NCBI GenBank assembly: GCA_026874595.1
Contig: CM049314.1
Location: forward strand, 31,385,729 to 31,449,728
DNA: 64,000 bases
Source of the DNA: Sipunculus nudus
Taxonomy: Eukaryota > Annelida > Sipuncula > Golfingiida > Sipunculidae
Direction: 5' to 3'
Position numbers and translations under genes: made by a program. Shown here piece by piece: positions 10,451-62,113 of this stretch; position 1 is the first letter of the stretch; every line of letters starts with the position of its first letter. The notes under the pieces were generated by a model, which saw nothing but the letters and a program-made list of their open reading frames with translations, did no database searches and was not told where the DNA came from.

Positions 10451-12333
10451 AAGTGTCATTTTTCCTGTGGTCACCTTTTTTATAATAAACATTTTCCATT
10501 TTCTCTTATATATAATTTATTACTTTCTACAAATATTAACAATACTAAAGAGGTTAATTTAGTTGACAAAAAAAAGACATGGGTATAATTTGTCAATAGT
10601 TAATTTAAGTCAATAATAATTCGATCTAGATCTAAACATTTATTATTTCTTTTATAAAAGTCAGTTTATTTACCAGCCCTGATATCTATCCATATGTTGA
10701 TTTTGATGATCACGCGGTTCACTGGAAAAATATAGCGTTTGAAATAATTATTTAAATTTGGCTTACATTTGCGTGTTTCATAACAACTAATAACTTTCAT
10801 TGTTGACAAAATGCTTACTTAATTTTAAGTGTGAACATAGCCCAAGAGCTATTATGTGTATACTGTGAATTAGAAATCTGTTGCTGGAAAATGCATACAT
10901 TAACTGTGTTTTTTTTCCCTACTGTTTTGCTTGGTCTGGTTCACTGTCAAACAATAAGTGTTATAAATTACACAATATTGTCATAATTACAAGCGTGGAC
11001 ATCGCATTTAATATTGAAACCCCTACTAGAAAACACTGAGGAAAAAAATGCCCACGGTCCATATGCGTCAGAGTTGCCCTGAAAGACCCCCCCCCCCCCC
11101 CCCCTCCGCCCATCCAGACCCCCACCTCATACGACTATGTATTAATTTAAATTTAATTTTACAATAGAAATAACATAACACAGTTCTGTAGGCTTACTTT
11201 TTATTATTATACATGCAGAACTTTATATTTTGTCAGTTCTCTTTCTCTATCTCTCCCTCTCCCCTCCCCCCTCCCCTAATGACCATGCAGTTGGAATGGC
11301 AGAATTACATGACTTTTTGCAGCCTATATCAAAGATATTGCCAAAATATTTACGGCTGTATACGAAGTGGGCATAAAAGTTATACGGTACTTTATAGTAT
11401 TACCACCAACATCTGAATATAAAAGAACGTGCATATTTACCTATATACTGCATGAGTAAAATCAAACTAAATGACAGTAAAACATTGCACTGTTTAAACA
11501 AAAAAAAATCGGAGAGTAGTAAGAACCAAATAATTTGGCTCGACGCCCATATTGACAGTTATTATGAATATATGCATAATTAGAAGCATTGTGTTTGAGG
11601 TAAAATTACATGATTCAGTATATCATAGCCGGGTACAGAACTGAAAGAGGGCTGGGGTGTATTCTTGAGTATGTCACTAATACCAGTGACGAAAACAACC
11701 CCTTTATTTATTCATAATTAGATATGTAATATGGAATACCTCTGAAACGTAGTTCTTATAAAATTCATTGAAAATTAGATTATTTGTTTTATGTTACTTG
11801 TATTATCCATCATCAAATCGACAGCACGTGCACTCACCAGACCAATAATCCAAGTCGTGTAATAGAATAAATAAATAACATAAATATAATATGAAAGTAA
11901 TATATCACAAAATGTATAACAAAATTGATTTGAATGAATAGCAAACTGACGAAGAAATAGTCGTTGAATCTATTCCTGTTTTTTGAAATTCCTACGTCAG
12001 AAGAATGAGTGATGAACAATGTAAGACCAAGTTATTTGATTAGTTACATTTGCATTGTTTTATTACTCAAATGAAAAGATTGCAGATGGCCACCCTTATT
12101 GATTCCCTTTGGTAGCGCCAGTTATATCGTGAGAAACTGACCGTACTCACAATGCCTGCTACTCAGAGGGCAAATAATTATTGCAAGTTTTCTGTTTTAC
12201 GTTCACCTTGTTTTTACTGTTGTTCACCTGCTCTTTTATCATGAAGAATTGCTAACATTATTTATTCGAACATCATTAGAAAGATGAATTTGGTTTAAAA
12301 CACTTCAAAATGGGGAAATGATTGTTAAAAAAC

Positions 12334-12408
12334 GGAGATATTAAGATGGATTGGCCAGTCGCATATGAGGGGTGTCATGAAGAACAAGACCGTGATTTTG
12401 AGTGACAT
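12334..12408 (-). CDS. G5: signal-peptide first exon
   Basis: The ATG at 12,406-12,408 opens MSLKITVLFFMTPLIC, a short basic start followed by a hydrophobic core typical of a secretion signal. The start and upstream sequence resemble the G1 first exon (62,011-62,113: MSLKIILIFPLTPLVL), including a shared CCTTTGG block upstream of the ATG. The 3' splice boundary is uncertain: the homologous positions show only a weak GTTTTT or GTATTT donor. Without splicing the frame stops at 12,325. G3 has the same open exon; G2 and G4 have stops at codons 4-5. Confidence 0.55.
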
Positions 12409-12631
12409 CACTCTGAGACACAATCATACACGGCAATTTTACCAAAGGTAATTATTCAGAATATACACAGGCTATTATCATTGTTTTATCAACTTTTACT
12501 TTATAACCTTTTATTGATAATTAAATCATTCGCAAGTATACGAAGGAGAACAGTAAATATCCCCTATACTCTCTCACAACAAAACATGTGTCGTATCTGG
12601 GATTAGGAAATTTAAGTGATAATACATTTAA

Positions 12632-12639
12632 TTTATATA
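12632..12639 (-). promoter_or_regulatory. Putative TATA box of G5
   Basis: TATATAAA on the minus strand, about 225 bp upstream of the G5 start codon. The surrounding block (AAGCATCCTTATATATAAAT) is kept in all four array copies at a similar distance (12.63, 20.82, 39.10 and 54.51 kb). It is a candidate core promoter, not demonstrated. Confidence 0.35.
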
Positions 12640-13297
12640 TAAGGATGCTTTAATGTATCTTTATTTGTCTCCCAATGGTTACAAGAATATAAATAATTGT
12701 TAACCATATTTAATAAGCACTTCATCTTGTTTTATCCCGAGCTTACTTGAAAAAAAGGTGATTGGGTAAACTGAGTCTTTTACCAGCGTGGTTTTATAAC
12801 CACTGTCATATGACATTGGTGCTGCATATTGTCATTGGCTCATATGATAATACTGTAGGATGAAAAAATATGCATGTCACGAGTCCGATTGCAATTCATA
12901 ATATTACTGAGCTCTTTGTATAGTGATAAGAACAGATAATATCGAACAGTGAATTGTTTGATAACTGGATTAGTAATCAAAATGTATGCAATCGCCAGGC
13001 AATCACTGGAAGCATCCTCCCATGCCCGGAATGTAACGTTAATGGGCCAACAGCTGTTGATTGTAAGACCCTGGCTATAAGGTCAAGGTAAATAATAAAC
13101 AAATAAAGGTACAAATCTGCAAAATAGAATAACATTGTGCCAAAATTATTATGATACACACAGCCTAATCATTTCATTGTCATTCCGTGCACCTTATGCA
13201 GAAGGTCCTTTTTTTCTATTGAATCACACTTGTTTTTTAGTCTGTAGAGTTGAAGGTGAAAGATACCGATTTTTTGTAGGAGACATTGGGTGTTTCC

Positions 13298-13380
13298 TTA
13301 TTTAGGAAAGGTAAGAGTAAACAGCACACTTTTCTCTTGATAACAATCTCTGTCCAATGATAGGTTGGATTCTAGGTAAC
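13298..13380 (-). CDS. G4: last coding exon, cytoplasmic tail
   Basis: Acceptor TTTTTACTTGTAG leads into phase-1 coding that completes the codon begun by the 44-nt exon. It reads RYLESNLSLDRDCYQEK, then SVLFTLTFPK, then TAA at 13,298-13,300. G2 has the same exon with conservative changes (39,765-39,847). In G1 a roughly 80-bp insertion truncates it (55,258-55,289). There is no recognisable signalling motif; two tyrosines (RYLES, CYQE) could be phospho-sites. No clear AATAAA was found close by. Confidence 0.6.
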
Positions 13381-13663
13381 CTACAAGTAAAAATTTACAA
13401 ATTCAACAGTATAAATCTCTCATTGATGGCTTGCTTATTGTTGATTCATATCTTGTACATTCTGCAGTATTTCTATGCAATTATAAGTTTGTCACGCAAT
13501 TGAGTTTAAATTTTTTCTTTATATTATATTTAACAAAGATATCTTGAGAAAAAATAAAATGAAAAAATATAAGAAAATGTTGTAATTAAAGCTTTGTATG
13601 TTCAACAAACATATATTTATAAAACACGATAAATCTGTGTAAACAATATCGCAAAATACATAC

Positions 13664-13707
13664 GATGAGCCGCTTTAACTGCTAAATGTTCACGAACTCT
13701 CCATGCT
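13664..13707 (-). CDS. G4: 44-nt cytoplasmic microexon
   Basis: Acceptor CAACAG and donor GTATGT bound 44 nt. Together with the 2-nt overhang of the transmembrane exon it reads RAWRVREHLAVKAAH, a basic juxtamembrane segment. Phase in and out fits both neighbours. It is present in all three tail copies with at most two or three base changes. The 46 bp of intron on its 3' side (13,617-13,663) is identical in G4, G2 and G1. Confidence 0.7.
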
Positions 13708-13925: not shown

Positions 13926-14055
13926 CTGATCCATATCCAATACAAAATAATCAGAAGGAGACCGAATCCAAACATAGCGGCATGTAGAGGCACAACTACT
14001 TTTAAATATGTGGAATATCCGTTAGTTTCCCAGTAAGTTTCATTGGTGGTAAACT
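13926..14055 (-). CDS. G4: transmembrane exon
   Basis: A 130-nt exon with acceptor GTTTATTTAAG and donor GTAAT, open for 42 codons. A Thr/Tyr-rich extracellular stretch (TNETYWETNGYSTY) is followed by a hydrophobic run (VVVPLHAAMFGFGLLLIILY, then WIWIR) that makes one membrane span ending in a basic stop-transfer residue. It joins in frame to the microexon at 13,664. The G2 copy has a nonsense change in WIWIR, and the G1 copy is frameshifted. Confidence 0.75.
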
Positions 14056-14400: not shown

Positions 14401-14529
14401 CATGCGCCCGTGAATTCGCTGCCACATGGGTGGTTTCAACACTGCTGATGCTCCCTGTGGAAGTTGTGTTGTAGTATCTACTAGGATTGTTGAAACTCTC
14501 TTTCTCCATGGTCACATGCTGATCGGTAT
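14401..14529 (-). CDS. G4: Ser/Thr-rich stalk exon
   Basis: A 129-nt exon (acceptor CACCTAG, donor GTATGA) with 42 full codons. It reads TDQHVTMEKESFNNPSRYY, then NTTSTGSISSVETTHVAANS. N-x-S/T sequons (NTT and others) and Ser/Thr richness fit an extracellular linker between the EGF block and the membrane exon, which follows on the minus strand. The same exon is open in G2. In G1 it runs into a stop because the donor is lost. Confidence 0.7.
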
Positions 14530-15617: not shown

Positions 15618-15839
15618 ATATGATGCAGTTTGGAGGCTGGTAACCATCTTTACATGTACATCGGCCAAGGGTGTTACATGAACTTCTGTTCCGGCAGTTG
15701 TCAGAACATTTAGATTTACATCGGATACCAAACCAACCAGGTTTGCAAGAACACGCCCCATTCTGAACTTTGCAGGCTCCAGCACATCCATCTGAACACT
15801 TTACGGTACAGCCAGGGCCCCATGATCCAGGGGTGCAAT
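15618..15839 (-). CDS. G4: EGF exon e4, intact
   Basis: A 222-nt phase 1-1 exon (acceptor TTCAAAG, donor GTAAGT) with no stop. It encodes EGF-like repeats of the MEGF/CED-1 type: DCTPGSWGPGCTVKC, GACSCKPGWFGIRC, KSKCSDNCRNRSSC and RCTCKDGYQPPNC. It is the only fully open e4 of the five in the window: the G5 and G3 copies carry two stops, G2 a frameshift and G1 a stop. Its phase joins e3 upstream (GAA GAA G + AT TGC) and the stalk exon downstream (T + AT ACC). Confidence 0.85.
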
Positions 15840-15971: not shown

Positions 15972-16109
15972 CTTCTTCGCACCTAGAACCCCGCTTTCCT
16001 GGCAGGCATCCCTGCAAACATTCTCCATTCCTTGCATCACACATTTTGCTTCGACATTTACCAGTGCATGAATATGTACAACCTCTACCATACGTTCCGG
16101 GTCTACAAG
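15972..16109 (-). CDS. G4: EGF exon e3, intact
   Basis: A 138-nt phase 1-1 exon, acceptor TTTATAG and donor GTGATA. It reads CRPGTYGRGCTYSCTGKC, then RSKMCDARNGEC and LQGCLPGKRGSRCEE: one full EGF-like repeat. The G2 copy (47,206-47,343) has Cys-to-stop near the end and Cys-to-Tyr at the start. G1 lacks the exon. Confidence 0.8.
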
Positions 16110-16408: not shown

Positions 16409-16633
16409 ATTCTTTGCAGAATGGACCCTTGTAGCCAGGTTTACAATGACATCGTCCATTATCAGATGAGCATTTTTCTATATTTTCACAATGTTGTGAA
16501 CACGGCAGTTTACATCTCTGTCCGTACCAACCAGTTCTGCACTTGCATGTGCCACTCACTGCATCACAGTTGTCCTTGCAATGAACTGAACATTCATGTT
16601 TACAGTCGTGGCCCCATTGGCCTGACATACAGT
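16409..16633 (-). CDS. G4: EGF exon e2, intact
   Basis: A 225-nt phase 1-1 exon, acceptor ATTACAG and donor GTGAGT, open throughout. It encodes two EGF-like repeats: DCMSGQWGHDCKHEC, SGTCKCRTGWYGQRC, then KLPCSQHCENIEKC and GRCHCKPGYKGPFC. The cysteine spacing is typical of MEGF10/CED-1/SCARF-type laminin-EGF-like repeats. The other four copies are truncated or carry stops. Confidence 0.85.
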
Positions 16634-17062: not shown

Positions 17063-17154
17063 CTGTCTTACACCAGCGGCCAAATTTGCCGGGAATGCAT
17101 CCTTTTTTGCATATTCCATTCTCGTTACACTGCTTCCTGTAACAGTTGCTGCAA
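17063..17154 (-). CDS. G4: EGF exon e1, 5'-truncated
   Basis: Compared with the full 131-nt e1 at 48,328-48,458, the first 39 nt and the old acceptor are deleted. Intron sequence now abuts the exon, and the junction offers TTTCATTAG as a new acceptor. Starting there gives 92 nt in phase 2-1, the same phases as the full exon, reading CSNCYRKQCNENGIC, then KKGCIPGKFGRWCKT. The shortened repeat lacks its first two or three cysteines. Use of this acceptor is inferred. Confidence 0.5.
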
Positions 17155-20100
17155 CTAATGAAACAGTTATTGGAAATGTAGATCATTTGTGGTAAAGAAC
17201 GTTGGTGTGAAAAAATTATATGAAATATCGTAAATATTGCTTTGCTTCCAACACAAAATTATTACTACTCCACCTATTAAAATTATTTATTTCGTAATTA
17301 TATTTGCTTCATTATCACGGAGAAAAAAAGTATTTTACTCACTTGTTCAAAAGCAGGAGGCAAACATCCAAAAATGAAGCCAAAACGAGGAAATATGCTA
17401 TACACCTGGACATATTTTGTAGTTTGACGAGTTTGGATCATGTATAGTCTGATATCCTTTATCTGGGTTATGTAAGTGTTGCGTGGTTGGATTCAGCGCC
17501 AGTCAAGTATATTAATTAACCAGTACAGAACAAGCAAGTAGAGATTAAGCCATTTATCTTTACTCTAAGGCAAGTGGTTATTACAACGGTATATATATGG
17601 TGTTATATGCATTAACTGGACAATATACTGATCATCCGGGTAAGATAATAATAAAATTAAACACTTTTGCGCCACAATATCTAGGGTAATTTTAGTCCTG
17701 GGCTAAAGAAGTAGCAAGATAAATGTTAAAATTCATTCAAAATATGATTTTTTTATGAAGAGTAAATGCGCAAGTCAAGTTTTATTGAAATAAATTCAGG
17801 ATAAGAGGTCTCAAAATGGCCTCAAAATTAATATATATTATTTCCTCTGATCAAACAGTTATTAAAATAAAGCTTATGTTGTGACAATACTCATCTTTAT
17901 CAAAATTATGCAATGTTGATACATTATCATAGTTACAAAGTATTATTGTCCATGTACTGGCACAAAGTCCCTCTCGATAAAGCCATAAAATTGAGAATTT
18001 GGTTTGTAAAAAGGGGAATTACAGGGTAATTACTCTATTTTTATGTTTGAAACATCTTGAAAGGACACCTTAAAAGGCCAAGGTTTTTGGTATTTGACAT
18101 TTCCTGAGCGCTATAGGCTTCCCCGACTCATGGTCTTGGAAGTTCATTGTTCAAAATACCTCAAGGTGTAGGTGCATGCCCATAATTTCTTGTCGTTTTC
18201 ATGTATATGATCACATTTATCATCATTAAAATAGGAATGCTCATAAAAATCCAATGATACCAAGATCTTGGACCTATGTTTAGATTTGCAAAAGTAATGA
18301 CGTGAAAGACACTGTAAAGACGATTTTTCTGAAAATATTTCACTTGCAACTCAATGATTGTTTATTGTGCCTTATTTTGCATAATTGGAAAGTTATGTAA
18401 AATATGCCTATGCATTTGTGCTGGAAGATGTTTTAAACATACTCAAACAGGATTGATTTGCCTTAATCCTTCAAATAAGCCTTTCATACAATGATATCTG
18501 GCAAAATGTAACGTTTCAGAAAGAAATTAGGGGTAAGGGATACTAAAGTGGTCTAAAATGTTACACACGTTACATTTTTAAATCCACATTATATCATAAA
18601 CATTTACAAAACATTGATCCAAAGTAACTAAGCAATAGAAACGACAATATTCAATAGGAATTTGGTTTATTTCAAGTAATGTTGTTTGGTAATGGGCCTT
18701 AAAAGAAAGGTTAACCGGCATATTATAACCCTGTAGCATCTGAATAATCTGTCAACAATTAAACTTGCAAGTGGTCACATTTTAATAAAAGAAAATTTGT
18801 CATTTCTATTTATATATTTATTATGTATTACTTTCTTCTGATAATTATATTACCAAAGAGTTTAATTTAGTTGGAAGAAAATAAAAGACATGTGTAAAAT
18901 TTATCAATAGTTGATTTAAATCAATATAAAAGTCGATTTAAATAAAACAAAATATAAAAAGTCATGTTTTTAAAGTCAATTTATCAACTAGATATCTATC
19001 CATATCTATCCATAATTACAAGCGTGGACATTTTTTTTATCGAAACCCCTACTAGCCCTGTTGTCCAGCCACATGCTGAATTTGATGATCACGCGATTCA
19101 TTAGAAAAATACACAGTTAAAAAATGTGTTAATTTTGCAGACATTTGCGTTGTTGTCATTACATAACAACTAATATCTTTAATTGATTTTCATAAATTCC
19201 ATGCAATCAATGTCATAAAATACACAATATTCACCTGATTAAAACGTGGACATGGCATTTTAATCAAATCCTTGTAGCACTGAGATTTCTCCATATGCTA
19301 AATTTGATGATCAGAGTTTAAAAAAAATAAAGTTTGGCTGACATTTGCGTTGTTGTTATTACATGAAAACTAATAACTTTCATTGTTGATATATGCTGAC
19401 ATATGTGTATACTGTGAATAAGAAATCTGTAGCTATGAAAATGCATAAGTAACTGTGTAAATTTCTTTCCTACTTGTTTGCTAGGTCTGGTTCATTGTAA
19501 AACAATAAATGTCATAAATTTCACAATATTGACCTAATTACAAGCGTTGACATCGCAATTTTATTGGAACCCCTACTTGAAAACTATGAGCGAAAAGGTC
19601 CAACGGTTCATAAGCGTCAGGGCTTGCCCTGAAAGATATGATTGTTCAGGTCTGCCCCCCCCCCCGATCCCCCGCCTCGTACGCCTATGTAATAATTTAT
19701 ATTTATATCTACAACAGCAATGACATAGTTCTGTAAGCCTACCATTATATTATACATGCAGATTTTATATTAAGTCACTTCTCCCCCCCCCCCCTCTTCT
19801 TCTCTCCTAATCACCATGGAGTTGGAATGGCAGATTTACATAACTTTTTCAGCCTATATATTGCAAAAATATTTACGGCTGTATACGAAGTGGGCATGAA
19901 AGTTTTAAGGTACTTTTAAGTACTACCAACAATCTCTGAATAAAAAGGAACGTGCATATCTATCTATATACTGCATGAACAAAATAATTCGGCTCTACGC
20001 CCATATTGACACTAATTTTGAAAATATACAATAATCCTAGTCGTGAAAAAATAGATAAATTATATAAATATCATGCAAACTTAATATATAAAAAAATATA

Positions 20101-21380: not shown

Positions 21381-21734
21381 CTATGATTAACAAGTGTAAA
21401 ATAATCCATGAAATACAGGTGTGTGAGCAAATTGTTAATGAAGATTTCGTTGGTTGTGTAAATACGATAATATGTGAATTAAAAAACATTGCCACGTTTT
21501 TCGCATTTAAATCCTCTTTTCCCTGGCAGAAATCATTTAAATTTGGTGAAATGTTTACAATTAATAGCACCAACCGCATCTCTTGGGGACTGCTTGCTGT
21601 TTATCCGGTTACTTACCCTGGACAATAACTTATTAATATCAACTCGATCAGTCGGTTATCAATATTTCCCCGAAGCTTTCCTCGATAAAAATGAACTCAC
21701 GGTCCTCATTAACTGATCCTCACAACAACCCGCT

Positions 21735-21830
21735 GTTGCTGCCACAAAGATCACCAAACCAGCCAGGTCGGCAGGTACATCCGCCATGTACGTGGTCGCA
21801 TGGTTAGAGGCATTAAACGGAACAATGGTG
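21735..21830 (-). pseudogene. EGF-like exon remnant
   Basis: Reads CDHVHGGCTCRPGWFGDLC with stops upstream and downstream. Homologous to 59,570-59,700 and 25,545-25,652. Confidence 0.65.
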
Positions 21831-22342
21831 ATGATAGTGCTGAACAAATGTTGAATTGACACCTTCCGTAAGCGAATATATGGCGAACTATCGACCAACC
21901 ACCGATGTTGTTTTACAATACAGAGTGCTCTATGGTTGGTTATTGATTGGAAAATATGCTGGACCATTTAATATAGTGTGGAAAGTAATAAGAAAACATT
22001 TTTACTCCCAGAAAGAAAGAGAAGTTATCCATAAAAGTGACATGCACATCTGAATATGCAACGGTTTCTAACTCATTAATATTTATAAGTATATATAATA
22101 AGCTGAAATATTCTGCGACCTGTCATGTGGAAACATAAAAAATGAAGCAATATTTTCGTTCATAAGGGAAAGGGAGAGAGATAATGACGTCGCGAGGCCT
22201 GACGGAGAAAGTTGTCACGGGCTTTTCCGATAAATGCACACTTTGAGGATTTGGTACTATTCATATCCAGTTTACTCGGATGTCATTTACCGGCCTCTGT
22301 TAATGGTAAACTTATTCTTTTTTTATGCGAGTAAGTAGTCGG

Positions 22343-22346
<4 letters not shown>

Positions 22347-22407
<61 letters not shown>
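22347..22407. repeat. (GA)n microsatellite
   Basis: About 60 bp of uninterrupted GA. Confidence 0.98.
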
Positions 22408-22413
<6 letters not shown>

Positions 22414-22494
22414 CTACTGATGACACAGTCGGCCAGTTTATAACCACAAGCATTTTCCGGTGATATCACCCTTCCGGTGACGCTTTAGGTTGAC

Positions 22495-22612
22495 CTTCCT
22501 CATAACCACCCTTCTCTGCAGTTGCACTTTCCGTTACCGTTGTTACTGGCGCTCACACAACCAGATAAGTAGTTTGCTTGACAGTTTCGACCAAAATTGC
22601 CATCATGACAGT
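22495..22612 (-). pseudogene. EGF-like exon remnant
   Basis: Acceptor AAACTCAG, then DCHDGNFGRNC and later GKCNCREGWL followed by TGA. Homologous to 60,318-60,519 but shorter at its 3' end. Confidence 0.65.
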
Positions 22613-22794
22613 CTGAGTTTATAAAAAAAAATTAATTTAAAATCATAATGATTTCTTTTCTTAGAAATAAAAAAAGTTCATATTGATAAAATTGGAATTG
22701 AATACTTGACCTCAAAGTCCGACACTGTTTTTTCACTTATCACTTATCTTTATAGATTACGTATTTAATAAGAAATTATGATTGTGATTAGACG

Positions 22795-23014
22795 CAGGAG
22801 ATGCAGGCTGACACTTGCATGTGAAATATCCAGAGGGTTGGTTTCCAGGTTTATATCGACATACCCAGTCCTTGGTGCACATTTGTTGTCGTCTGTTTTC
22901 AAATTTCGACCCGTCCATCCAAGCATACAGCTGCACTCTCCGTAAACCACACCAAAAGCACTTGCACCTCCTGTTGAACACCGCCAACGACAACCCTGTA
23001 CCTAACGACCAAGG
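22795..23014 (-). pseudogene. EGF-like exon remnant with frameshifts
   Basis: Acceptor GTTTGCAG. Readable pieces are GCRWRCSTGGASAFG, YGECSCMLGWTGRN and, in another frame, CRYKPGNQPSGYFTCKCQP. An early TAG and at least one frameshift break it. Homologous to 60,780-60,977. Confidence 0.65.
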
Positions 23015-23454
23015 CTGCAAACTTTACGATTTAAAAAAAAAAATTTCCTTCAAAACATATTGTTTACCTTAAACATCATTTGAGTAGTTAAAATACATTG
23101 ATAATAAAAAAGTAAATAAAACATAAACAAATAACCGCCATATTAACCTGCTGAGGAAAGTAAGTTTTACATTTCTGAACTGCTCTATGAGTGTTGCTCT
23201 GTGTGTACTGAAATGACCATGGACAGTTCATATTACAACATACTGGTATTTGCATTTTTACCTAAACAGAACAAACAAGGATGTCGACCGTTTATAAAAA
23301 TATACTGTTTTCTACATATAACTTATGCACCATTACTTATACAATTTAATGGGTTTCACATTCGAATGGTAATAGGAAATCAAAATACAGAATATTTAGT
23401 ATAATCCTACAGCATAAAACCAATATATTTCGACCTACGTGACGTGCATTTGGA

Positions 23455-23570
23455 CGTGCATTTGGCCTGTTCGGCCAAACTTTCACAGACCATCCCTAGT
23501 ACAGACACCCTCCTATTCTTCTATACTGACAGTAGTCTCCGTGCCGAGAAATATCTGAGAACTATCTGAG
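23455..23570 (-). pseudogene. Degraded copy of G1 EGF exon 2
   Basis: Weakly matches the intact exon at 61,420-61,561 (shared ACTGTCAGTA and GGTGTCTGTAC blocks) but has deletions and no open frame. Confidence 0.5.
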
Positions 23571-23689
23571 AAATATTCTTATTTATTCAGGATTAAAATG
23601 ATTACCCCTCTTTTTTATGTGAAGAGGAAAGACGCAAGTCATCGTCTTTTAAAGGTTATTTTACATTAACCTGCAGACTTTTTGCCCCG

Positions 23690-23725
23690 TATCTCCCAGC
23701 AGGGCACCTTATATTCAATGTTGCA
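23690..23725 (-). pseudogene. Start fragment of an e1-like exon
   Basis: Shares TCTCCCAGCAGGGCACCTTA with the 5' end of G1 e1 (58,752-58,775), then homology stops. The intron behind it (23.73-25.5 kb) follows G1 at 58.8-59.5 kb. Confidence 0.5.
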
Positions 23726-25544
23726 ATGTCCTCTCAAGTTTATATTATATATTTAGAAATGTTGTGCTTTGCTTCCATTAAAATGCTACTGTTGATCATT
23801 AGTGTTGAAGAAGTTTTGTGTAAAAATATATTACATAAAATATTATATTTTTATAAAATGAATTAAAGGTTAAAACTATGAATAGCTGGCCTTGTCTTTG
23901 TGTGCAACTCAAGATTTTTACGACTCGATATATTCAAATAATTTTCAGCTTTAACCTAATCTCCGTGGAGAATATCATTATTTATTCATGAACTATATAT
24001 ACATGCATACTTTGTAGTTAGACACGTTTGCATCATACACACTGATACCCGTTTTTATCTGAGCTCTCTGGTTGTCGCTTGGTTGGATTCAGTGTCAATC
24101 AAAGAAAATAGTAGCCCATTTAACATATGACCGAATTTACGACTTGCTATGTATGAGTAATGAATCACAATAAAAAATAAACCAGTTATTTACAAATCGC
24201 TGTAACAATGGTGCATATGCAGGATATGCATCCAACAAACAATATACTGTCATATATGTTGTGTAAACATGCAAATATGGTCATGAAGGAAACGAGTTAA
24301 ACTGACGTAGTTGAAGGAAATTGTTATAATGGTACTAGTTCTTCTTGGTTATGTTGAGAGATATGTTGATTCACTGGTTATTGTAAAGCTAAGCGTCCCG
24401 TCGCTGACTTGATAATATTGTATAAAAAATTAACAAATCCGATCAGGCAGTGCACATGTTTGTTTGTACAACTTAACTTTTCTTGTTAACTCAATTTACA
24501 CCATGCATACAACCAAAACGCATATGGAATAACTTTCCTATATATTTGTATTTTGTGAAGTAAATTCTTCTGATTTCATTTTCCCTCAGCAACGGGGCTC
24601 AACATTATGTTGCAATCCAAAGAGTGCGCTTCGACTGACAATACCTGTTGCAAGTAAACATCCGCATTTGTAATAATTAAGGTTGACGTCACCGCTTAAC
24701 GCAAATATAAAGTGACATAGATACAGTCATTTCGTAAACATAAACATACACCAGATATGATATTGATGTGATTCATTATTTTATTTTATTTCTTTGATAT
24801 ATTTACGTAGGTGTATGCTTTGCATTTGGAAACAACGGTTCATAATTGAGACAATATCTTCATTAACATAATATTAGTGCATATCAATTGTATTCCCTTT
24901 TTCGGATTTGCTTTGAATTTCTTGATAATTTGAAAAGCATGCAATGCATATGCAAAGAGACGCTTGCGTAGTTTGACACCAAGCTGAACGTGCAAATGAT
25001 TAAGAACTGAGAGAGCTTAATCTCTGAAAGAGACTTATTGTATAGTCACCAAATTTAAAAATGTATTCAATAAAAGAAATAAAAAAATAACAACCATATG
25101 TTTTAAATCATACATATGCGATTAGGTAAACAATAGATAAATAATTTAACAGACTTGTAATATCAGAAAATAATGTAATTAACATTTATCGAGAGGCCTT
25201 AAAAAATAATTTGTATTCGAACATCGGTAACAATAACTTCCATTTTCATTGTAACATCCTGGGCAGTTTGCTAAAATGGAGTATATTTATTTTTATCTGT
25301 TCGACTCTGTATTAATTATATTAATGCAATTAAGATCAATATTTTGTGTTATATCTCCATTGAAGAATATTTTGAACATTCGTCGTTAAATTTATATTTA
25401 TAAAATAATTAACAGAATATAAATTTTATATAATTATACTCGATTTATTCAAATAACTATGTACATTTGGGTGTTTCGTCCCATCCCTGGCTGACGTTCC
25501 ACTCCTCACAACAACTCGCTGTGCAGTTGATATTGCAGTGGTCA
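23726..25544. other. Intronic region, partly duplicated from G1-like copy
   Basis: AT-rich. It resembles 58.8-59.55 kb in patches (for example the AGAGACTTATTG and ATTTATCGAGAGGCC blocks). No coding signal seen. Confidence 0.5.
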
Positions 25545-47343: not shown

Positions 47344-47629
47344 CTATAAACATAGTCGTATGACGGCATGTGGACTCATTTTGATAATCCTAAACTAATA
47401 AAAAAGTAAATTTCGAAACTCAATGATTCTTTAGGATATTATGCATAATGAGAATAGGATGATTTATTTTGTCAACAGAACAGGATTTAATACAGAACCA
47501 TTTGGCATTTGCAGACCTGGCTTCTTTGGATAAGAGATGTATATACATACATGACAAATTTAGAATATCGTTTGTTCCATAGCAAAAAAAAAAAAAGGAA
47601 ATTACATTGAATGTATTTTCTATTTAAAC

Positions 47630-47854
47630 ATTCTTGGCAGTATGGACCTCTGTAGCCTGGTTTACGAAAACATCGTCAATTTTCAGATGAGCATTTTTCT
47701 GTATTTTCACAATGGAGCGAACACGACGGTTTACATCGCTGTCCGTACCAGCCAGCTTTACACTTACATGTGCCACTTGCTGCATCACAAATGTCCATGC
47801 AATGATTTGAACATTGATGTTTACAGTCGTGCCCCCAGTGGCCTTACATACAGT
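47630..47854 (-). pseudogene. G2: EGF exon e2 with two stops
   Basis: 225 nt. TAA follows DCM, and TGA stands where the intact copy has Gly in NGRC. The donor is weakened to GTTTAA. Confidence 0.8.
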
Positions 47855-48327
47855 CTGTTACGGTAAATATTTTAAGATGAGCAAATGCATCCCATTAGAA
47901 TAGTCATCTTTGTAATTTATATTGCACATTTAAGTTGTATAAATGTGAAAAATACCTTGATAAAAATCCTGATACCTAAATCTTACTTTTGGCCTAGAGT
48001 ACCGCTTAGCATGCCTTCAATTTCTAACATGAACTTCTGTGTGGCCTGTACATATTGTATGATTTTCAAGAAATAGTTCGTGTCTATATTTGTCCGTACA
48101 TTAAAATGGCCTCGGTGTAACTTTATCTGGAGGCGTTATACATTATCCATTTATATTAACTAATATCAACTATATCTTCAAAGAGTCATTCTCTAGGGTT
48201 ACCCATTTTATATTGTTGTCTATATCCTAGTCTCCTAGTTCTAAAGCCTTTTAAGCCATACCGCACAGGAGTAGCATACCAACAGAGCATCAAACAGGTT
48301 AATATTAAACAAAATGAGAGATAATAC

Positions 48328-48458
48328 CTTTCTTACACCAGCGGCCATATTTGCCGGGAGTGCATCCATTTTGGCATATTCCATTCGCGTTACACTGCTT
48401 ACTGTAACAGTTGCTGCAGATTGTCCGACATTCTGGGCCATATCTTCCAACAGGACAC
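48328..48458 (-). pseudogene. G2: EGF exon e1, intact reading
   Basis: The best-preserved e1: 131 nt, acceptor TTATAAG, donor GTATTA, 43 codons reading CPVGRYGPECRTICSNCYSK, then QCNANGICQNGC and TPGKYGRWCKK. The exon is open; the gene around it is broken. Confidence 0.7.
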
Positions 48459-49109
48459 CTTATAAATAAATATTTAAAAAATATGGCATATTTTTGCACT
48501 ATGTGTCCGTGTCGAGATGATTTGCCTTCTGAAAATACTTAATATATCACATTAGGTTTTTTAAACATAAAGTTTGTATAGTTTTTATAATGTTTGTCTT
48601 CCATATCAATGAAACAGTTATTGAAAATGTGGATCACTACTGGTGAAGAACGTTGACCAGTCGTAAATATTGCTTTGCTTCCAATACAAAATTATTACTA
48701 CTCCACCTATTCGAATGATTTTCAACATTTTCTTCATATTCATATTTACTTTTTTTCATGGAGAAAAAAGTATTTACTCACCTTTTCAGAAGTAGGAGGC
48801 AAACTTCCGAAAAAGAAGCCAAAACGAGGAAATGAACTATACACCTGGACATATTTTGTTATTCGAGTTATTTAATTGTCATTTGGTTGGATAAAGCGCC
48901 AGTCAAGTATATTAATTCACCAGTATAGAACAAGCATGTAGGGAATAAGCCATCTATCTTAACTATAAGGCAAGTGGTTATTTCAGCGGCATATATGTTG
49001 TTACTAAACAATGTATTGACTATCTTCCGGGTTATTAAATAATCAAATTAAACACTATTGCGCTACACTACTTGGGGCAATTATGGAGCAGTTAGAAGAT
49101 ATCCGCAAG

Positions 49110-54520: not shown

Positions 54521-55257
54521 TAAGGATGCTTTAATGTATAACTATCTTTATCTATTTCCCTATGGTTAAAAGAATATAAATAATTGTTAACCATTTTAAA
54601 TAAGCGCTTTCTCTTTTTTTATCCTACCAATGTGGTTTTACAACCCCTTTAGTATGATCTGGTTGCTGTATATTGTCATTGCCTCACATAATAATACTGT
54701 AGGATAAATAAATTTGCATTTCACGAGTCCGGTTGCAATTTATCACATACCTTAGCTCTTTGTATAGTGATAAGAACAGAAAATGTCGAACAGTAATTTT
54801 CTTAAACTGGATCAGTTATCAAGATGCATGCAATCGCCAGGAAATCAATGGAAGAATCGTCCTCCCATCCCTGCAAAGGAACGATAATGGGCCAGCGTCT
54901 GACGTTGTAAGACCCTGGAAATAAGGTCAAGGATAAAAATGAAAAAATAAAGATGCAAATCTGCAAAATAGAATAATATTTGCCAAACGTATTAATGATA
55001 CAAACAGCCGAATCATTTCAATGTCATTTCGTGCACTTAATCAGAAGGGCCCCTTTTTCTATTCAATTACTCTAGTTTTTATTCTGCAGAGTAGAAGGTG
55101 AAAGACATTTTATTTTGTAGCAGATATAGTGTATTTCTTTATGAAAAATAAGAGTTATCAACAAACGTTTCTTGGTAACATTCTCTGTCCACAATTTTCC
55201 CATAAAAAGTAAGTTGCAGCTGAAATTTCCGATTCTCCGGTATTTCGAGCCTCTTGA

Positions 55258-55289
55258 TCAATCCAATGATAGGCTGGATTCTAGGTAAC
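55258..55289 (-). pseudogene. G1: last exon, truncated by insertion
   Basis: Starts as in G4 (RYLESSLSLD), then TGA. About 80 bp absent from G2 and G4 is inserted at this point, and homology resumes near 55,190. Confidence 0.6.
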
Positions 55290-55577
55290 CTACAAGTAAA
55301 AATTTACAAATTCAAAATTATTAACGTATTTTGATGGCTCGGTTGCTGATGATTTTTATCTCGTTCATTCTGCTAAATTTCTATGTATTTATAAGATTGT
55401 CACGCAGCTGAGTCTAAACGGCATTTATATATTATAATTTACAAAGATCTCTTGAGAAAATAAAAGGATAACATATAAGCAAAATGTTGTTATTAAAATT
55501 TTTGTATGTTCAACAGACATTTGCATTTATTTATAAAACACGATAAATCTGTGTAAACAATATCGCAAAATACATAC

Positions 55578-55621
55578 GATGAGCCGCTTTAACTGCAATA
55601 TGTTCACGAACTCTCCATGCT
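55578..55621 (-). pseudogene. G1: 44-nt cytoplasmic microexon, open
   Basis: Reads RAWRVREHIAVKAAH. Both splice sites are intact although the gene is dead. Confidence 0.65.
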
Positions 55622-55826
55622 CTGCTGATTTAAGATAATTTTTATCTCGATTATAGCTTTATGAAAGAGGATATAACTTTAAAAGGTCGGAGTATTCTGA
55701 TAATATTATGTCTTTAATTATATTACTTTTTCATCATTCCAAAAATATCGCACTTATACTTTCATGGTTTGTATCGTTATTGCGCCAATTTCAGTTGTGC
55801 ATATTGTAACGTGAGTGTTATATTAC

Positions 55827-55959
55827 CTGATCATATCCAATACAACACAATCAGAAGGAGACAAACATAATCAAAACATAGCGTCATGTAGAGACACAGC
55901 TGCTTTTACATATGTGGAATATCCGTTAGTTTCCAAGTCAGTTTCATTGGTGATAAACT
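55827..55959 (-). pseudogene. G1: transmembrane exon, frameshifted
   Basis: Begins FITNETDLETNGYSTY, but TGA follows HDAMF and indels destroy the membrane span. 133 nt instead of 130. Confidence 0.75.
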
Positions 55960-56296
55960 CTAAAATAAATAATACTAAACTATACTAATACGCACTATGC
56001 ATTTGTGCTGTATCATCCTGGACATTATGACAAAAAAAATTCTATATTGAATACAAAGAATCTTTCCTGAACCATCGTGTTTTATTACATGAAGCCTAAG
56101 TGACTAGCACTTGAATTTAATCCAAGAACTGGTATTCAAGACTCAGTTTATGCATACAATACAGGTAAATGAAAGTGAATTGTGCTATTTATTAATTTTC
56201 ATTAAAAAATAATATCCATCCCGTACTCACACATAAAGGGATAATGTTAATAAATATCACATAAAGAATTAAACATTGGCATGAACCATCAAGATT

Positions 56297-56427
56297 TTAA
56301 TCCGTCCTTGAATTCTTCGCCTCATTGGTGTTTCCAAAACTACTGATGCTCCCTGAGGAAGTTGTATTGCAGTATCTACGAGAACTATTGACAACCCTAT
56401 TCTCCAAGGTCACATGCCGATCGGTAT
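56297..56427 (-). pseudogene. G1: stalk exon without donor
   Basis: Reads TDRHVTLENRVVNSSRRYC, then runs to TAA because the GTATGA donor has become GATTAA. Confidence 0.65.
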
Positions 56428-57345
56428 CTAGGTAAGCACTGAAACATGCATTGTCTTCCGTATTTTTTCCTTAGCTTAAGTTTCAATATTTAAATCTTTT
56501 GTTTATGGAATAATTTGCTTCTATGAAAAAAATATAAAACTGACAATTCCGTATAATAAATGTCACAGTGGAGTTTATATACTCCCGGAAGACTAGAAAC
56601 CCTACATATCTGCAGAAAGAGATCACGGTTGGCAACACGTATTTGTCAGAATCTAGTAGAAGTCGCGGTGGTATTCGCAGCTGGAGGAACTGATTCTATA
56701 TTCAGACAAATTCCAATTGCTTTTGAAATGTTACTGTAAACAGTTTACTGCATATCTGTAGCACAACATGATCTTCAAATAATGATCATATCACAGTTAA
56801 CACAGCCATTTGCATCAAGAAAATTAATCAAATATTCATCGCCTTTTCATACAATATATTCTATGTAAAATGAATATTATTTAAGCAGAAATAATCATTC
56901 GTGTTCATAATATTAAACTTTAAAACATTTTAAACATTTAAACTATATTGGCCTAAAACTATATTTGAAACAGGTTGGGAGCACAAGGTTTCTTTTTTTT
57001 CAAGTTTATTTTATTAGTTTATTTTTTTTCATTTGAGTCAGGAAATTTGTTTAATGACTACTCAATTGTTTTTTTTGTGGATAACATTTTTTTTGTATCA
57101 GCCCCAATCGTGTATAAAAGCAGGATGTAAGTTTATCTTTGAAAAGATAATGATTATGATTTCAACTATTTTAAAATATTTTCTTGTTACAGGAAACGCC
57201 CTCCATTTTTTTATGCCGGCTAATCTAAGTATATGTACATTTGATGAAATCGGTTCCGGTTTCGTGCAATTTGACAAGGCAGGATCACACCGTTCTCTTC
57301 AGTTAATATTATTTTTTGTACCCTGGTGACTACTGCACTTGCAAG

Positions 57346-57540
57346 ACCTGGGTGTTTAATCGTATCCATTGCTGGTACAAACTATGACCGTTGGACACGA
57401 TCTTCCCTTTAACCCTGCAAAGTGCTGACCCTGGATGGGGACCGACCGTACAAAATCTCATCGCCTTGACTTAGATTCGAACTCGAAATCCACTAAATTT
57501 GAGTCCCGAGCTCTATCCCTGAGCCATAGAAGCTTGTCTA
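57346..57540 (-). mobile_element. tRNA-derived SINE, copy in G1
   Basis: The cleanest head of the five: TGGCTCAGGGATAGAGC as A-box region with a matched D-stem, and GAGTTCGAATCTA as B box. Confidence 0.75.
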
Positions 57541-57793
57541 CAATATGCATTTGGTCTTCTTGTGGAGATCCAAATGAATCTCGAACTGTACAATTTCCAA
57601 TCCTACTGGCATCTCTACTGTGACATTTACATGTAATAAAATAATGTGAACCACCATTGTTAATTAAACTGGCATTAGATACGCAAGTTTCTGTTGCATC
57701 GTACGGCACATTAGGTCCAAATGTGAATATATATTCAGTTTATTTTTACCACATAGATTACTATCATGCAAAACACATTAAATTTAAACGTAC

Positions 57794-58015
57794 GTATGCT
57801 GCAATCTGGAGGTTAGTAGCCATCCTTACACGTACACCTGCCAAGTGTGTCACATGAACTTCTGTTCCGGCAGTTGTCAGAACATTTAGATTTACATTTG
57901 ATACCAAACCAACCAGGTCTGCAAGAACAAGCCCCATTCTTAACTTTGCAGGCTCCGGCACATTCATCTGAACACTTTACGGTACAAACAGGGCCCCATG
58001 ATCCAGGGAGGCAAT
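57794..58015 (-). pseudogene. G1: EGF exon e4 with nonsense change
   Basis: 222 nt. Opens DCLPGSWGPVCTVKC and reads well to TCKDGY, then TAA where G4 has Gln. Splice sites present (donor GTACGT). Confidence 0.8.
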
Positions 58016-58032
58016 CTATGAAGAAGGGAGGC

Positions 58033-58217
58033 AAATCGTCCGGTTTCAGATGTGCATGATTCTATCTTTTTACAATATTGTGAACACGGCAGTTGACATC
58101 TCTTTCCGTACTAACCAGTTTTGCATTTACATGTTTCACTCGCGGAGTCACAGTTGTCCTTGCAGTGTTTTGAGCATTCATGTTTACAGTCGTGTCCCCA
58201 GTGACCTGGCTTACTGT
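58033..58217 (-). pseudogene. G1: EGF exon e2, truncated and fused to e4 intron
   Basis: Starts DSKPGHWGHDCKHEC after an ACAG acceptor. TAG replaces Trp in TGWYG. Its 3' end runs, after ETGR, straight into the intron just before e4, so the end of e2, all of e3 and two introns are deleted. Confidence 0.75.
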
Positions 58218-58641
58218 CTGTAACAGTCAAGACTTAAAGATGAGTAAATTCTTCCTACCATAATAGCCCTCTTTGTAATATGGCACTCATACTTGAGTTG
58301 TCAATACATGTGGTAAACACCATGATACAATTCTTAACACTTAACTGTTAGTTGTGAACTATTGTACCGCATATCATTCCCTCAATGTCTAACATGAACT
58401 TATGTCTGTAGCTTTGTTTGTGTTTTTGTTTGTACATTAAAAAGGGCTTGGTTTACTAATATCTGGAGGCATTGAACAAACTGTTTTTATATTAACTTTT
58501 GTCTTTTTGATTTCTTTCACCAGAGTGAACCATATATTCTTTTTTTCCGTTATTATATATCTTTGTTAAACCGCGTTACAGTAGCAGTCCCATAGAGAAT
58601 GAGACTGGTTCTCATTATACAAAAAAATAATATCATAATAC

Positions 58642-58771
58642 CTTTCTACACAAGTAGGCATACTTGCAGGGAATGCAACCAAGTTGACATATTCCACTCT
58701 GATTACACTGCTTTCTATAACACTAACTGCAGACTGCCCGACATCCTGCTCTGTATCTCCCAGCAGGGCAC
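58642..58771 (-). pseudogene. G1: EGF exon e1 with nonsense change
   Basis: CPAGRYRAGCRAVCS, then TAG where other copies have Asn, then CYRKQCNQSGIC. 130 nt rather than 131. Confidence 0.75.
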
Positions 58772-59569
58772 CTTATAAGTAATGTTGCAAAAGTACGGTG
58801 TATATGTTACCAAATTTGATTGATATGGAATTTAAGTATATATGTTCTATGCTTTGTTTCCATTTCAATGTAACAGTTGATGAAACTGATTTAAAGGTTT
58901 GAAGAAGTTTGACATTAAGAAATCTATTACATTTATTAAATATTATATGTTTATAAAATTGAATAAAACTTATTAATATAAAAGTATGTGAATAGTTGTT
59001 TTTTGTCTTTATGTGCTATTCAAATTAATTGCTACTCGATACATTCAGATGATTTTCAGCATTTACCTAATCTTTAGGCATAATTTCTGAGAGACTCATT
59101 GTAAGTCACCAACGTTAAAATATATTCAATGAAACGAAAGAAAAAAAAACAAAAACAAATATGTTTTACATTATATATGCCATAAGGTAAACAATAGGTA
59201 AATACTTAAACACAATCTTATCCGAAAGAAATGTAATTAACATTTATAGAGAGGCCTTCGATATTTTTTTTTGGGAAAACATTGGTAATAATAACCACCA
59301 TGTTTATCTTTACATCATACACGATTGCTTAAATGGAGCAAACGTATTTTTGTCTGTTCTACTCTGCATTAAATATATGTCCCATTATGATTGATTTTCT
59401 GTGTGTTATCTCCATTTTTTTATGAGAAATATTTCAAACAATTTATGTTAAATCTATAAAACCATTAATATAATATAAAAAAATATATAATTATACTCGA
59501 TTTAATTATGTAGATATGTACATTTTTATGGTCTTTCGTCTCATCCCTCGCTGACGTCTAATTCTTCTC

Positions 59570-59700
59570 AACAACCCGCTGTGCAGTTGATGTCAGAAAG
59601 GTCACAAAACCAGCCGGGTCGGCAGGTACATCTTCCATGTACGTGGTCACATGGTGAGAGACAACCGCAGAAACAACGGTTGCGACAGTGCTGACTAAAG
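59570..59700 (-). pseudogene. G1: EGF-like exon ending in stop
   Basis: Acceptor CCAATTTCAG. Reads FSQHCRNRCFCGCLSPCDHV, then HGRCTCRPGWFCDL, and reaches TGA at its end with no clear donor. Related remnants lie at 21,735 and 25,545. Confidence 0.6.
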
Positions 59701-60317
59701 CTGAAATTGGAACATCATGAAAGAAAATAATAAACAAGCCAATGAGGTTTATTGCAGACTTTGACAAAAGATACACTAATACCGATACATTTCCCCAATA
59801 CAGACCATTCAATTACTTTGTTATTGAAAATATGATGAACACATGCAACATTAATTTATTTCTAAAAGAAAGAAAGAACGAACATACCTTCTAAAAAAAG
59901 CAACGCTTTTTAATGCAGTTTCGATGGCATGAGCATTTCCAAACACTCGTGCATATCAATTTTATTCACCATTTTGTGAATTTAGAAACAACTGTTTATT
60001 TAAAGACAAACTCTTCAGCTTTTGTCATAGTATTTGTGCATACCAATTTAATTCACCATTATTTTTATCTTATATCCTATCAATATCATATTGATATGAA
60101 AAAGATGCAATGATAAAGCAAAAAGACGTTTGCGTACTTTGACATCATGCTAACATGCAAATGATTAAGAACAGATAAAGCATAATATCTGAAAGGGACT
60201 CATTGTAAAGTCACAAACGTTAAAAATATATGCAATAAAACGAAAAAAATACCCAAGTTCTTTTTGTGTGTATGTATGTTTATGACAGAAAGAGAGAAAG
60301 GTAGGTTAACTTCCTAC

Positions 60318-60519
60318 TTTTGACGCAGTTGGTGGGTGCGTAACCAGGGGCACATGTGCAATTCCCAGTGACGTCACACTTCCGATGGCGCTTTAGTTGG
60401 CAGCGTCGTCCGAGCCATCCTTCTTCACATATGGACTCTCCATTTTTCTTTGTTACAGGTACTTACACATCTAGAGGAACAGTTTTGCTTGTCTCGACCC
60501 CAATTTCCATCACGACAGT
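60318..60519 (-). pseudogene. G1: EGF-like exon with 1-nt insertion
   Basis: Acceptor CCCAG and donor GTAGGA. Reads DCRDGNWGRDKQNC and CVSTCNKE. One extra A then shifts the frame, which resumes as GESICEEGWLGRRC and ends TCAPGYAPTNC. At 202 nt it is one base over the phase-1 length. Confidence 0.7.
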
Positions 60520-60779
60520 CTGGGTGTATGAATATAAACATTTCAAATTATTAATCTTTTCTTTAAACAAACAAAAAAGTTTCTTATAGAAAAAAAATGG
60601 AATGGAATACTTAACCCCAAAGTCCGACAATGCTTTATGTTCTGGTGTTTTATGTATAACATATTCGTAACACAAGCGCAACTTCATATATAATTTACAC
60701 ATGCTAACACAATAAATCACTTATCATTTATTTGGTAGGGAATTATTATTATGATTCGATGCAATAGATGCAGGCTGAC

Positions 60780-60977
60780 ACTTGCTTGTGACACATTCAG
60801 GGGTTGGCTATCCAGGTTTACATCGACATGCTCCGTTCTTGGTACACGTTTGTTGTCTTCTGTTTTTACACCTCTACACCGTCCACCACAGACCTGCACT
60901 CTCCGTATACCGCACCACAAGCACCTGCACAGCCCGCTGAACACCGCTAACTACCACCCTGTTCCCAACGACTGCGG
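60780..60977 (-). pseudogene. G1: EGF-like exon with stop and frameshifts
   Basis: Acceptor GCTTGCAG, an early TAG, then RCSAGCAGACGAVYGEC and a later frameshift. Homologue of 22,795-23,014. Confidence 0.65.
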
Positions 60978-61419
60978 CTGCAAGCTTTACCTTTTTTTTA
61001 TTTTCTCTTTCAGAATATTTCCTTTATCATACACACCATTCGTGATGTGCCATGGCTGGTATGATAAAATAATATATTCATAAATTATAACTCATTCATC
61101 TAGGTTTAAGGTTGACCTTAGAATCTAAATAAATATAGGTAATGTTTTGGCATATCATACAGATAAGTTTTATCTTTTTGGACTACTAAATAAATATTGC
61201 TCTGTGTACACTGAAGTAAGCATTGAAAGTTCTTATTATAATATGCTGGTATCTTCATTGTCACGGCAACTTTACAAACAGGAACATCGATCCTTTATTA
61301 AAATATCGTATGAACAATTACTTATACCCTTTGAATGGTTTCGCATTTGCATGGTTATATAAAATTAAACGATAGGAAATTCAATTTAAGCATGGGGCAT
61401 GAGCTCAGTTAGATCTCAC

Positions 61420-61561
61420 CTACGTGAATTACATTTGGAGCCTTGTTTTCCAGCTGTGCAACTGAATTTACACAAACCATCCCTGTTACATCCGTTGTAC
61501 AGACACCGTCCTACACAGGAATACTGACAGCTATCACCGTACCGTCCAGTCTGACAGACAA
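61420..61561 (-). CDS. G1: EGF exon 2, intact
   Basis: 142 nt, acceptor GCTGTTTCAG, strong donor GTGAGA, open throughout. Reads VCQTGRYGDSCQYSCVGRC, then NRDGLCKFSCTAGKQGSKC: one EGF-like repeat. Phase 1 at its start matches the signal exon at 62,011, and phase 2 at its end matches e1-type exons (G + TGC). The degraded homologue at 23,455-23,570 shows it once existed elsewhere in the array. Confidence 0.75.
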
Positions 61562-62010
61562 CTGAAACAGCAAGGGCTATTTGAGAAATATGTTTATATT
61601 CAGAATTAACGTCAGTACCAATAAGTTAATATGTAAAGGGGAAAGAGGCAAAGTGATCCTACAGGTTTATTTAACGTTATGACTGGCAAATGTTGCACAA
61701 TCTTCAGTGAAAATATGAATACTTTTTTGTATAAGTGCCAGTTTATACTTCATGAACTGCTCTGTCAATTTATATTTACTGGCCAATCTTCCCCTTTAGC
61801 TAATTCCTGAGAGATCAGTGAAACATACCACATATTATTTGGATGCGGGTTCTGAATAGCAAATGTTTATGACAGGTTGGTTCACTTGTCATTAAGGATA
61901 TGACTGTACAAGAAAGCCACTGTTCATATGTTGGCGGAGCAACTAAAGTTCATCTCTCAAAATGTCTGAATCAGAACAGAAGACCTCAGTTTCTCCCAAA
62001 ACGTACTCAC

Positions 62011-62113
62011 TGATGTGTATGTTTCTTAATCCATGACCAATAACATGGCTTCTGCACTCTTGTTCTAAGACAAGTGGCGTCAACGGAAAAATTAATATGA
62101 TTTTAAGTGACAT
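62011..62113 (-). CDS. G1: first exon with signal peptide
   Basis: The ATG at 62,111-62,113 opens MSLKIILIFPLTPLVL, a likely secretion signal, followed by EQECRSHVIGHGLRNIHI and a consensus donor GTGAGT. The 103 coding nt end in phase 1, which joins exon 61,420-61,561 in frame (A + TT = Ile). The start was chosen because the MSLKI opening and about 60 bp of upstream sequence are shared with the first exons at 12.4 and 38.9 kb. Later exons of G1 are broken, so only a short secreted fragment could be made. Confidence 0.65.

What the first reader, a model, noticed from the sequence alone, without database searches (positions are those of the whole stretch)
12325..62113. Head-to-tail array of MEGF-like receptor genes in birth-and-death decay
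At least four signal-exon-to-next-tail boundaries repeat with about 0.9 kb between a last exon and the next first exon. Exon phases match across signal, EGF, stalk, membrane and tail exons. Each copy carries a different set of lesions, and only G4 keeps an open chain from e1 to stop. This fits an expanding immune-type or clearance-receptor family, but the role is inferred from EGF architecture only.
Basis: partly seen in the sequence, partly recalled or inferred. Interest (0 to 1): 0.7.

Follow-up and report, generated by a model that had tools for sequence, protein, structure and literature searches.

The report
Decaying cluster of short EGF receptors
This stretch of an animal genome holds part of a cluster of repeated genes for small cell-surface receptors built from EGF modules; many copies are broken, one complete reading chain survives and was recently duplicated with its surroundings, much like receptor clusters already known from snails.

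Summary
The observation largely holds. The window is part of a cluster of EGF-receptor genes on a 79.8-Mb contig. EGF-type matches run from 23.6 kb left of the window to 160 kb on its scale, near the end of what I fetched. Exon phases fit and copies carry lesions. One copy, "B" (window 17413-13298, minus), keeps a nine-exon, 377-residue chain open from start to stop.

Corrections. A second open chain, H1, may end inside the window.

MEGF10/CED-1 membership is not met: tail of about 44 residues, no NPxY. The best solved relative is SCARF1. The closest known kind is the Biomphalaria SudRes1 cluster (PMC12297450, passages). New member of a known kind; function inferred. Side finding: dispersed herpesvirus-like elements carrying an EGF-rich frame.

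The parts
17343..17413 (-). Copy B exon 1, signal-type peptide MSRCIAYFLVLASFLDVCLLLLN, ends in phase 2 at a GT donor
17063..17154 (-). Copy B exon 2, shortened EGF exon, still in frame
16409..16633 (-). Copy B exon 3, two EGF modules
15972..16109 (-). Copy B exon 4, atypical 8-Cys EGF module (below Pfam cut-off)
15618..15839 (-). Copy B exon 5, two EGF modules
14401..14529 (-). Copy B stalk exon, Ser/Thr/Asn-rich
13926..14055 (-). Copy B membrane exon
13664..13707 (-). Copy B first tail exon, RAWRVREHLAVKAAH; a relative, RAWIVREKIALETAQR, lies at 79.7 kb on the window scale
13298..13380 (-). Copy B last exon with stop
46855..48852 (-). Copy D head: exons 1 and 2 open; exon 3 with two stops, exon 4 with one, exon 5 with a one-base insertion and stops
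39765..40994 (-). Copy D tail (assigned to the head by order): stalk and tail exons open, membrane exon with one stop
55129..58782 (-). Copy E: exons 1 and 4 not found, stops in exons 2, 3 and 5, stalk donor altered, membrane exon frame broken
30595..32459 (-). Copy C head: exon 1 deletion and lost donor, first half of exon 3 missing, exons 4 and 5 broken
3494..5358 (-). Copy A head, recent duplicate of copy C with the same lesions
21723..25647 (-). Relics of the second gene type: four EGF matches, three with stops
59514..61556 (-). Relic F of the second gene type: four EGF matches, three with stops
62899..62999 (-). Candidate last exon (membrane segment and stop) of gene H1, whose first exon is at 68098 on the window scale, outside the window
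   Evidence: no homology support for this one exon
1..7741 (.). Part of the 27.1-kb tandem duplication, matches 27103-34813 at 98.5%
27103..34813 (.). Second copy of that stretch

Best explanation
The window is part of a cluster of small single-pass EGF receptor genes, in tandem units that turn over by unequal crossing-over. Shown: repeated units with the same exon order and phases; lesions in five of the seven B-type copies, the other two being B and its twin; one complete chain (B, 377 residues: signal-type peptide, five EGF modules and part of a sixth, Asn/Ser/Thr-rich stalk, membrane segment, tail of about 44 residues); and a recent 27-kb tandem duplication that copied B unchanged. Inferred: B and its twin make a surface receptor that binds ligand or neighbouring cells through its EGF modules. 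Because the tail shows no NPxY or YxxL-type motif, it most likely works as an adhesion, scavenging or decoy receptor, or through a partner, rather than as a self-signalling engulfment receptor. Likely gains from copy turnover are dosage and new binding variants, as proposed for snail resistance clusters.
For: Nine-exon chain open, all 8 introns AG/GT, phases fit. Five other B-type copies modelled, all broken (heads only for A, A2, C). Neutral simulation of 4000 runs each: intact chain in 3.2% at 2% divergence, 0.2% at 4%, none at 8% (indel rate and transition bias set by hand); B and D differ by dS 0.157 over 362 codons. Tandem duplication: 30 mismatches and 16 gap openings in the 26 kb from -21117 to 4924, divergence rising at both ends. 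Solved relatives: SCARF1 E 8.9e-16, Tie2 E 1.2e-11. A membrane/tail query gave 9 matches at E up to 1, all in this cluster. Precedent: SudRes1.
Against: No transcript or protein evidence. Exon 2 of B is shortened relative to other copies, which could mean early decay. B and its twin are identical because the duplication is recent, so their identity says nothing about selection. B-E dN/dS is about 0.6 (0.143/0.242): expected when one partner is a pseudogene, but weak as proof of constraint. A codon-position scan of the tails gave no useful coding signal. No signal-peptide or membrane predictor was run, only hydropathy.
Confidence: 0.72

Rival explanations
1. All B-type copies, B included, are dead relics; B is open only because it died recently.
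For: The five other B-type copies modelled are broken, exon 2 of B is shortened, and its twin's identity is explained by recency.
Against: An unconstrained nine-exon chain would rarely stay intact even at 2% divergence: 3.2% of runs.
Confidence: 0.13
2. True engulfment receptors of the MEGF10/CED-1 family that lost their long tail or whose tail exons I missed.
For: EGF repeats of the SCARF/PEAR/MEGF type.
Against: Tail about 44 residues, no NPxY or YxxL-type motif; no EMI domain reported; the right-flank relative H2 has a similar membrane exon and first tail exon.
Confidence: 0.08
3. Ectodomain-type paralogues of EGF receptor tyrosine phosphatases that act as decoys or co-receptors.
For: Among the rows listed, the best match outside the cluster is an intronless 1154-residue frame on C9:10.2 Mb with EGF modules and two phosphatase stretches. 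Against seven hand-picked own-genome pieces and H1 it ranks first for B by blastp E-value (8.9e-37) and by best single phmmer domain. SudRes1 mixes both kinds.
Against: By whole-sequence phmmer score the MEGF-like L035 fragments and the two virus-like frames rank above it, so ancestry is unresolved. No phosphatase motif within 100 kb of the window (regular expressions only).
Confidence: 0.2
4. The recent 27-kb duplication is an assembly artefact (a stretch or both haplotypes laid in tandem).
For: Divergence of about 0.1% could fit a falsely repeated stretch.
Against: Divergence rises to 100 mismatches in the first kb and 23 in the last 0.8 kb, as when crossing-over occurs between older repeats; a third partial unit is 93.6-97.7% alike.
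Confidence: 0.15

Closest known systems
SudRes1 cluster of Biomphalaria sudanica (PMC12297450, passages seen)
   Different: Three SudRes1 genes carry a galactose-binding domain and intracellular phosphatase domains; Pfam reported neither for copy B. Association with parasite resistance was measured there; nothing of the kind was measured here.
SCARF1 / SR-F1 (solved entries 8hna, 8hn0)
   Same: Best solved sequence match, over EGF modules; type I membrane receptor
   Different: SR-F1 is described with 10 EGF-like repeats and a 385-residue tail (PMC7137648, passages); B has five modules and part of a sixth, and a tail of about 44.
MEGF10 / CED-1 / Draper
   Same: Multiple EGF-like modules and one membrane segment
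   Different: CED-1 binds its adaptor through an NPXY motif in the tail (PMC6242819, passages) and has 16 EGF-like repeats (PMC7137648, passages); B has no NPxY.

Membership tests
MEGF10/CED-1 engulfment receptors | NPxY motif in the cytoplasmic tail | tested here: not met
   the motif's role is from PMC6242819 passages
MEGF10/CED-1 engulfment receptors | N-terminal EMI domain (recalled, not seen in a paper here) | tested here: not met
   Pfam reported none for the 377-residue chain at E up to 0.01
MEGF10/CED-1 engulfment receptors | Multiple EGF-like repeats and one membrane segment | tested here: met
   (membrane segment by hydropathy)
Class F scavenger receptors (SCARF1/2) | EGF-repeat ectodomain similar to SCARF1 | tested here: met
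   phmmer E 8.9e-16 to 8hna_B
Class F scavenger receptors (SCARF1/2) | Long Ser/Pro-rich tail | tested here: not met
   tail about 44 residues; definition from PMC7137648 passages
Class F scavenger receptors (SCARF1/2) | Uptake of modified lipoprotein or other scavenger ligands | not testable with these tools
   needs a binding assay
Mollusc MEGF-receptor clusters (SudRes1 type) | Linked paralogous MEGF-domain membrane-receptor genes with structural turnover | tested here: met
Mollusc MEGF-receptor clusters (SudRes1 type) | Galactose-binding and phosphatase domains in some members | tested here: inconclusive
   no PTP motif by regular expression in 264 kb; one EGF-phosphatase frame lies elsewhere on the same contig
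Mollusc MEGF-receptor clusters (SudRes1 type) | Gene presence/absence between individuals | not testable with these tools
   one assembly only
Mollusc MEGF-receptor clusters (SudRes1 type) | Host is a mollusc | not tested

The most novel reading that the evidence does not exclude
The cluster is a fast-changing host recognition or decoy family in conflict with the herpesvirus-like elements of the same genome, which carry their own EGF-rich surface-type frame, similar in style to the cluster's EGF modules.
Probability: 0.05. Interest if true: 0.75.

Novelty: new member of a known kind. Interest (0 to 1): 0.35.

Why it matters
It gives a clear picture of a receptor cluster in turnover: a fresh gene pair with identical coding sequence beside five broken copies of the same type and relics of a second gene type. 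If the short-tailed receptor is expressed in immune cells, it would be a natural case for asking how clusters like SudRes1 gain and lose members. On present evidence it is an instructive but ordinary example.

Tried and rejected
NPxY-pattern matches occur near the tails of B, D and E, but the one in the last exon follows a stop in its own frame and is not in the spliced frame of B. Codon-position scanning between B and E tails gave no coding signal worth using. A phosphatase or kinase near the cluster was sought by regular expressions only; none found. Eight loci from the laminin-EGF family search held no match at 25 bits or more to my two EGF-exon profiles, so I did not count those places as relatives. 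Rfam gave nothing in the window. PF00716 gave no match in the genome, nor in the controls, which does not show absence. No structure prediction was run.

Paper searches: MEGF10 with tandem, bivalve and expansion, 0 papers; oyster MEGF gene family expansion, 1 paper, a sea anemone transcriptome; MEGF10/mollusc/class F, 32 papers of which 15 listed; EGF and bivalve tandem duplication, 38 of which 15 listed; SREC/CED-1 and expansion, 16 of which 12 listed; phosphatase/MEGF/mollusc, 10 of which 9 listed, including the SudRes1 paper. For most listed papers I saw the listing and abstract start only.

That it is a mollusc is my inference and was not tested.
Full report
Place and setting. The window is G000:C9:31385729-31449728 of a 1.43-Gb genome in 153 contigs, 28-39% GC in 2-kb steps. 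I fetched 100 kb on each side and give positions on the window scale: negative numbers lie to its left, numbers above 64000 to its right.

Observation. A six-frame profile search of the 264 kb found 87 EGF-type matches, 79 on the minus and 8 on the plus strand (score 14 or more, so the weakest may be chance). Twenty-seven lie in the window, all minus, 14 of 27 with an in-frame stop; 11 lie to the left (4 with a stop) and 49 to the right (13 with a stop). The leftmost is at -23.6 kb and none lies from there to -100 kb; on the right they reach 160 kb, near the end of what I fetched. Noncoding sequence shared with the window starts at about -26.9 kb. Of 10 exon pieces tested with Pfam, the two-module exons 3 and 5 of copy B pass a curated cut-off and the other 8 do not.

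Gene model. Copy B (17413-13298, minus) has nine exons: signal-type peptide, a shortened EGF exon, a double-EGF exon, a single-EGF exon, a double-EGF exon, stalk, membrane, and two tail exons. All 8 introns are AG/GT and the chain of 1134 bases is open from ATG to stop, giving 377 residues. The membrane segment is clear by hydropathy (2.43 over 19 residues) and the start is hydrophobic like a signal peptide; the tail has no NPxY and no YxxL-type motif. The five other B-type copies modelled are broken in several ways each (only exons 1-5 were tested for A, A2 and C, and the D and E tails were assigned by order). A second gene type (exons X1 to X5) lies to the right. Gene H1 of that type has an open seven-exon, 328-residue chain with AG/GT introns whose candidate last exon is in the window at 62999-62899; that last exon has no homology support. 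H2 at 85-79 kb has a similar membrane exon and first tail exon but a frame break in one EGF exon. The remaining right-flank genes were not modelled, so I cannot say what share of the whole cluster is intact.

The MSLKI-like stretch lies about 0.9 kb beyond the stops of B and D. In six aligned copies, C and E hit a stop after three codons and A2 lacks the ATG; B, D and F keep a frame. I read it as non-coding, though a transcribed leader in some copies is not excluded. The exon that fits by phase is MSRC..., open in B and D.

Duplication history. Self-alignment shows -24134 to 7741 matching 2989 to 34813 at 98.8%. In 1-kb steps the 26 kb from -21117 to 4924 hold 30 mismatches and 16 gap openings, while the first kb holds 100 mismatches and the last 0.8 kb 23. 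This fits a recent unequal crossing-over between older repeats; an assembly artefact is not excluded. The twin of B at -9690 to -13834 has an identical coding sequence, as expected from that recency. Older copies are 70-83% alike in alignments of 1 kb or more.

Is B alive? If unconstrained, a chain like this stays fully intact in 3.2% of 4000 runs at 2% divergence, 0.2% at 4% and none at 8% (indel rate set by hand from the gap counts, transition bias guessed). B and D differ by dS 0.157 and dN 0.063 over 362 codons, B and E by 0.242 and 0.143 over 255 codons. B has therefore probably been under constraint until recently. Expression was not testable.

Relatives. Against solved structures B matches SCARF1 (8.9e-16) and Tie2 (1.2e-11) best. 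In its own genome the search scored 109 of 1475 candidates and reported 244 matches, not all listed; in the rows listed, matches of 59% identity or more lie only in this cluster. A 68-residue membrane/tail query gave 9 matches at E up to 1, all in the cluster. Outside it, the best listed match is an intronless 1154-residue frame with EGF modules, F5/8-like similarity below cut-off and two phosphatase stretches. The order of EGF relatives depends on the measure: that frame leads by blastp E-value and best single domain, while MEGF-like fragments and the virus-like frames lead by whole-sequence score. Ancestry stays open.

Known kinds. SudRes1 of Biomphalaria sudanica is the nearest precedent I found (PMC12297450, passages): 10 of 23 genes encode MEGF domains, three of them with phosphatase and galactose-binding domains, with structural differences between haplotypes and loss of EGF domains in one copy. 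The present cluster looks like the same kind of thing with a shorter receptor type. Hence: new member of a known kind, modest interest.

Side finding. The search with B also hit intronless open frames, many of 1077-1182 residues, with listed rows on all of contigs C1-C17. The three pieces fetched are 50-52% GC and carry this EGF-rich frame; one piece also shows ankyrin repeats, and a long frame in another has a weak herpesvirus UL6 match, E 0.003, below cut-off. The herpes terminase family PF02499 gave 60 matches on C1-C17, some of them pieces of one copy, 13.6-14.3 kb from the EGF match in the three places compared. The herpes protease family PF00716 was not found, and the long frame had no match in solved structures or in the phage collection. 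I describe this only. Integration of a malacoherpesvirus in a lancelet is in print (PMC12373286, passages), as is Teratorn, a herpesvirus-transposon fusion of fish (PMC5601938, listing and abstract start). Two library searches (8 of 8 and 10 of 52 papers listed) showed no title that names such an element with many copies in a mollusc; I saw listings only for most, so I make no claim that it is unreported.

Noticed in passing
G000, dispersed: e.g. L029, L030, L031 (C7, C5, C12): Herpesvirus-like elements: 60 matches to the herpes terminase family on contigs C1-C17 (some pieces of one copy), an intronless EGF-rich frame of about 1090 residues 13.6-14.3 kb away in the three places compared; ankyrin repeats in one piece and a weak UL6 match in another; GC 50-52%. 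PF00716 not found.
   Followed up: partly
L032:769-4230 (C9:10.2 Mb): Intronless 1154-residue frame with EGF modules, a membrane-like segment and two tyrosine phosphatase stretches; F5/8-like similarity below cut-off.
   Followed up: partly
L035 (C9:3.3 Mb): Eleven Cys-rich open fragments, most looking like EGF modules, in 6 kb; the genome search also hit places at 3.26 and 3.30 Mb, so probably another small EGF-gene cluster.
   Followed up: no
window 80-475 and 27181-27576: Reverse-transcriptase-like fragment with YADD (LINE type by my reading, not searched), present in both units of the duplication.
   Followed up: no
window 45011-46840; 125629-136831 on the window scale: Stretches of window 45.0-46.8 kb recur near 125.7 and 135.6-136.8 kb, and 125.6-129.8 kb is repeated inverted at 132.1-136.0 kb, which holds 6 of the 8 plus-strand EGF matches.
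   Followed up: no
window 5885-6409, 17740-18260, 32948-33472: A repeat of about 0.5 kb in opposite orientation in neighbouring units, perhaps a mobile element.
   Followed up: no
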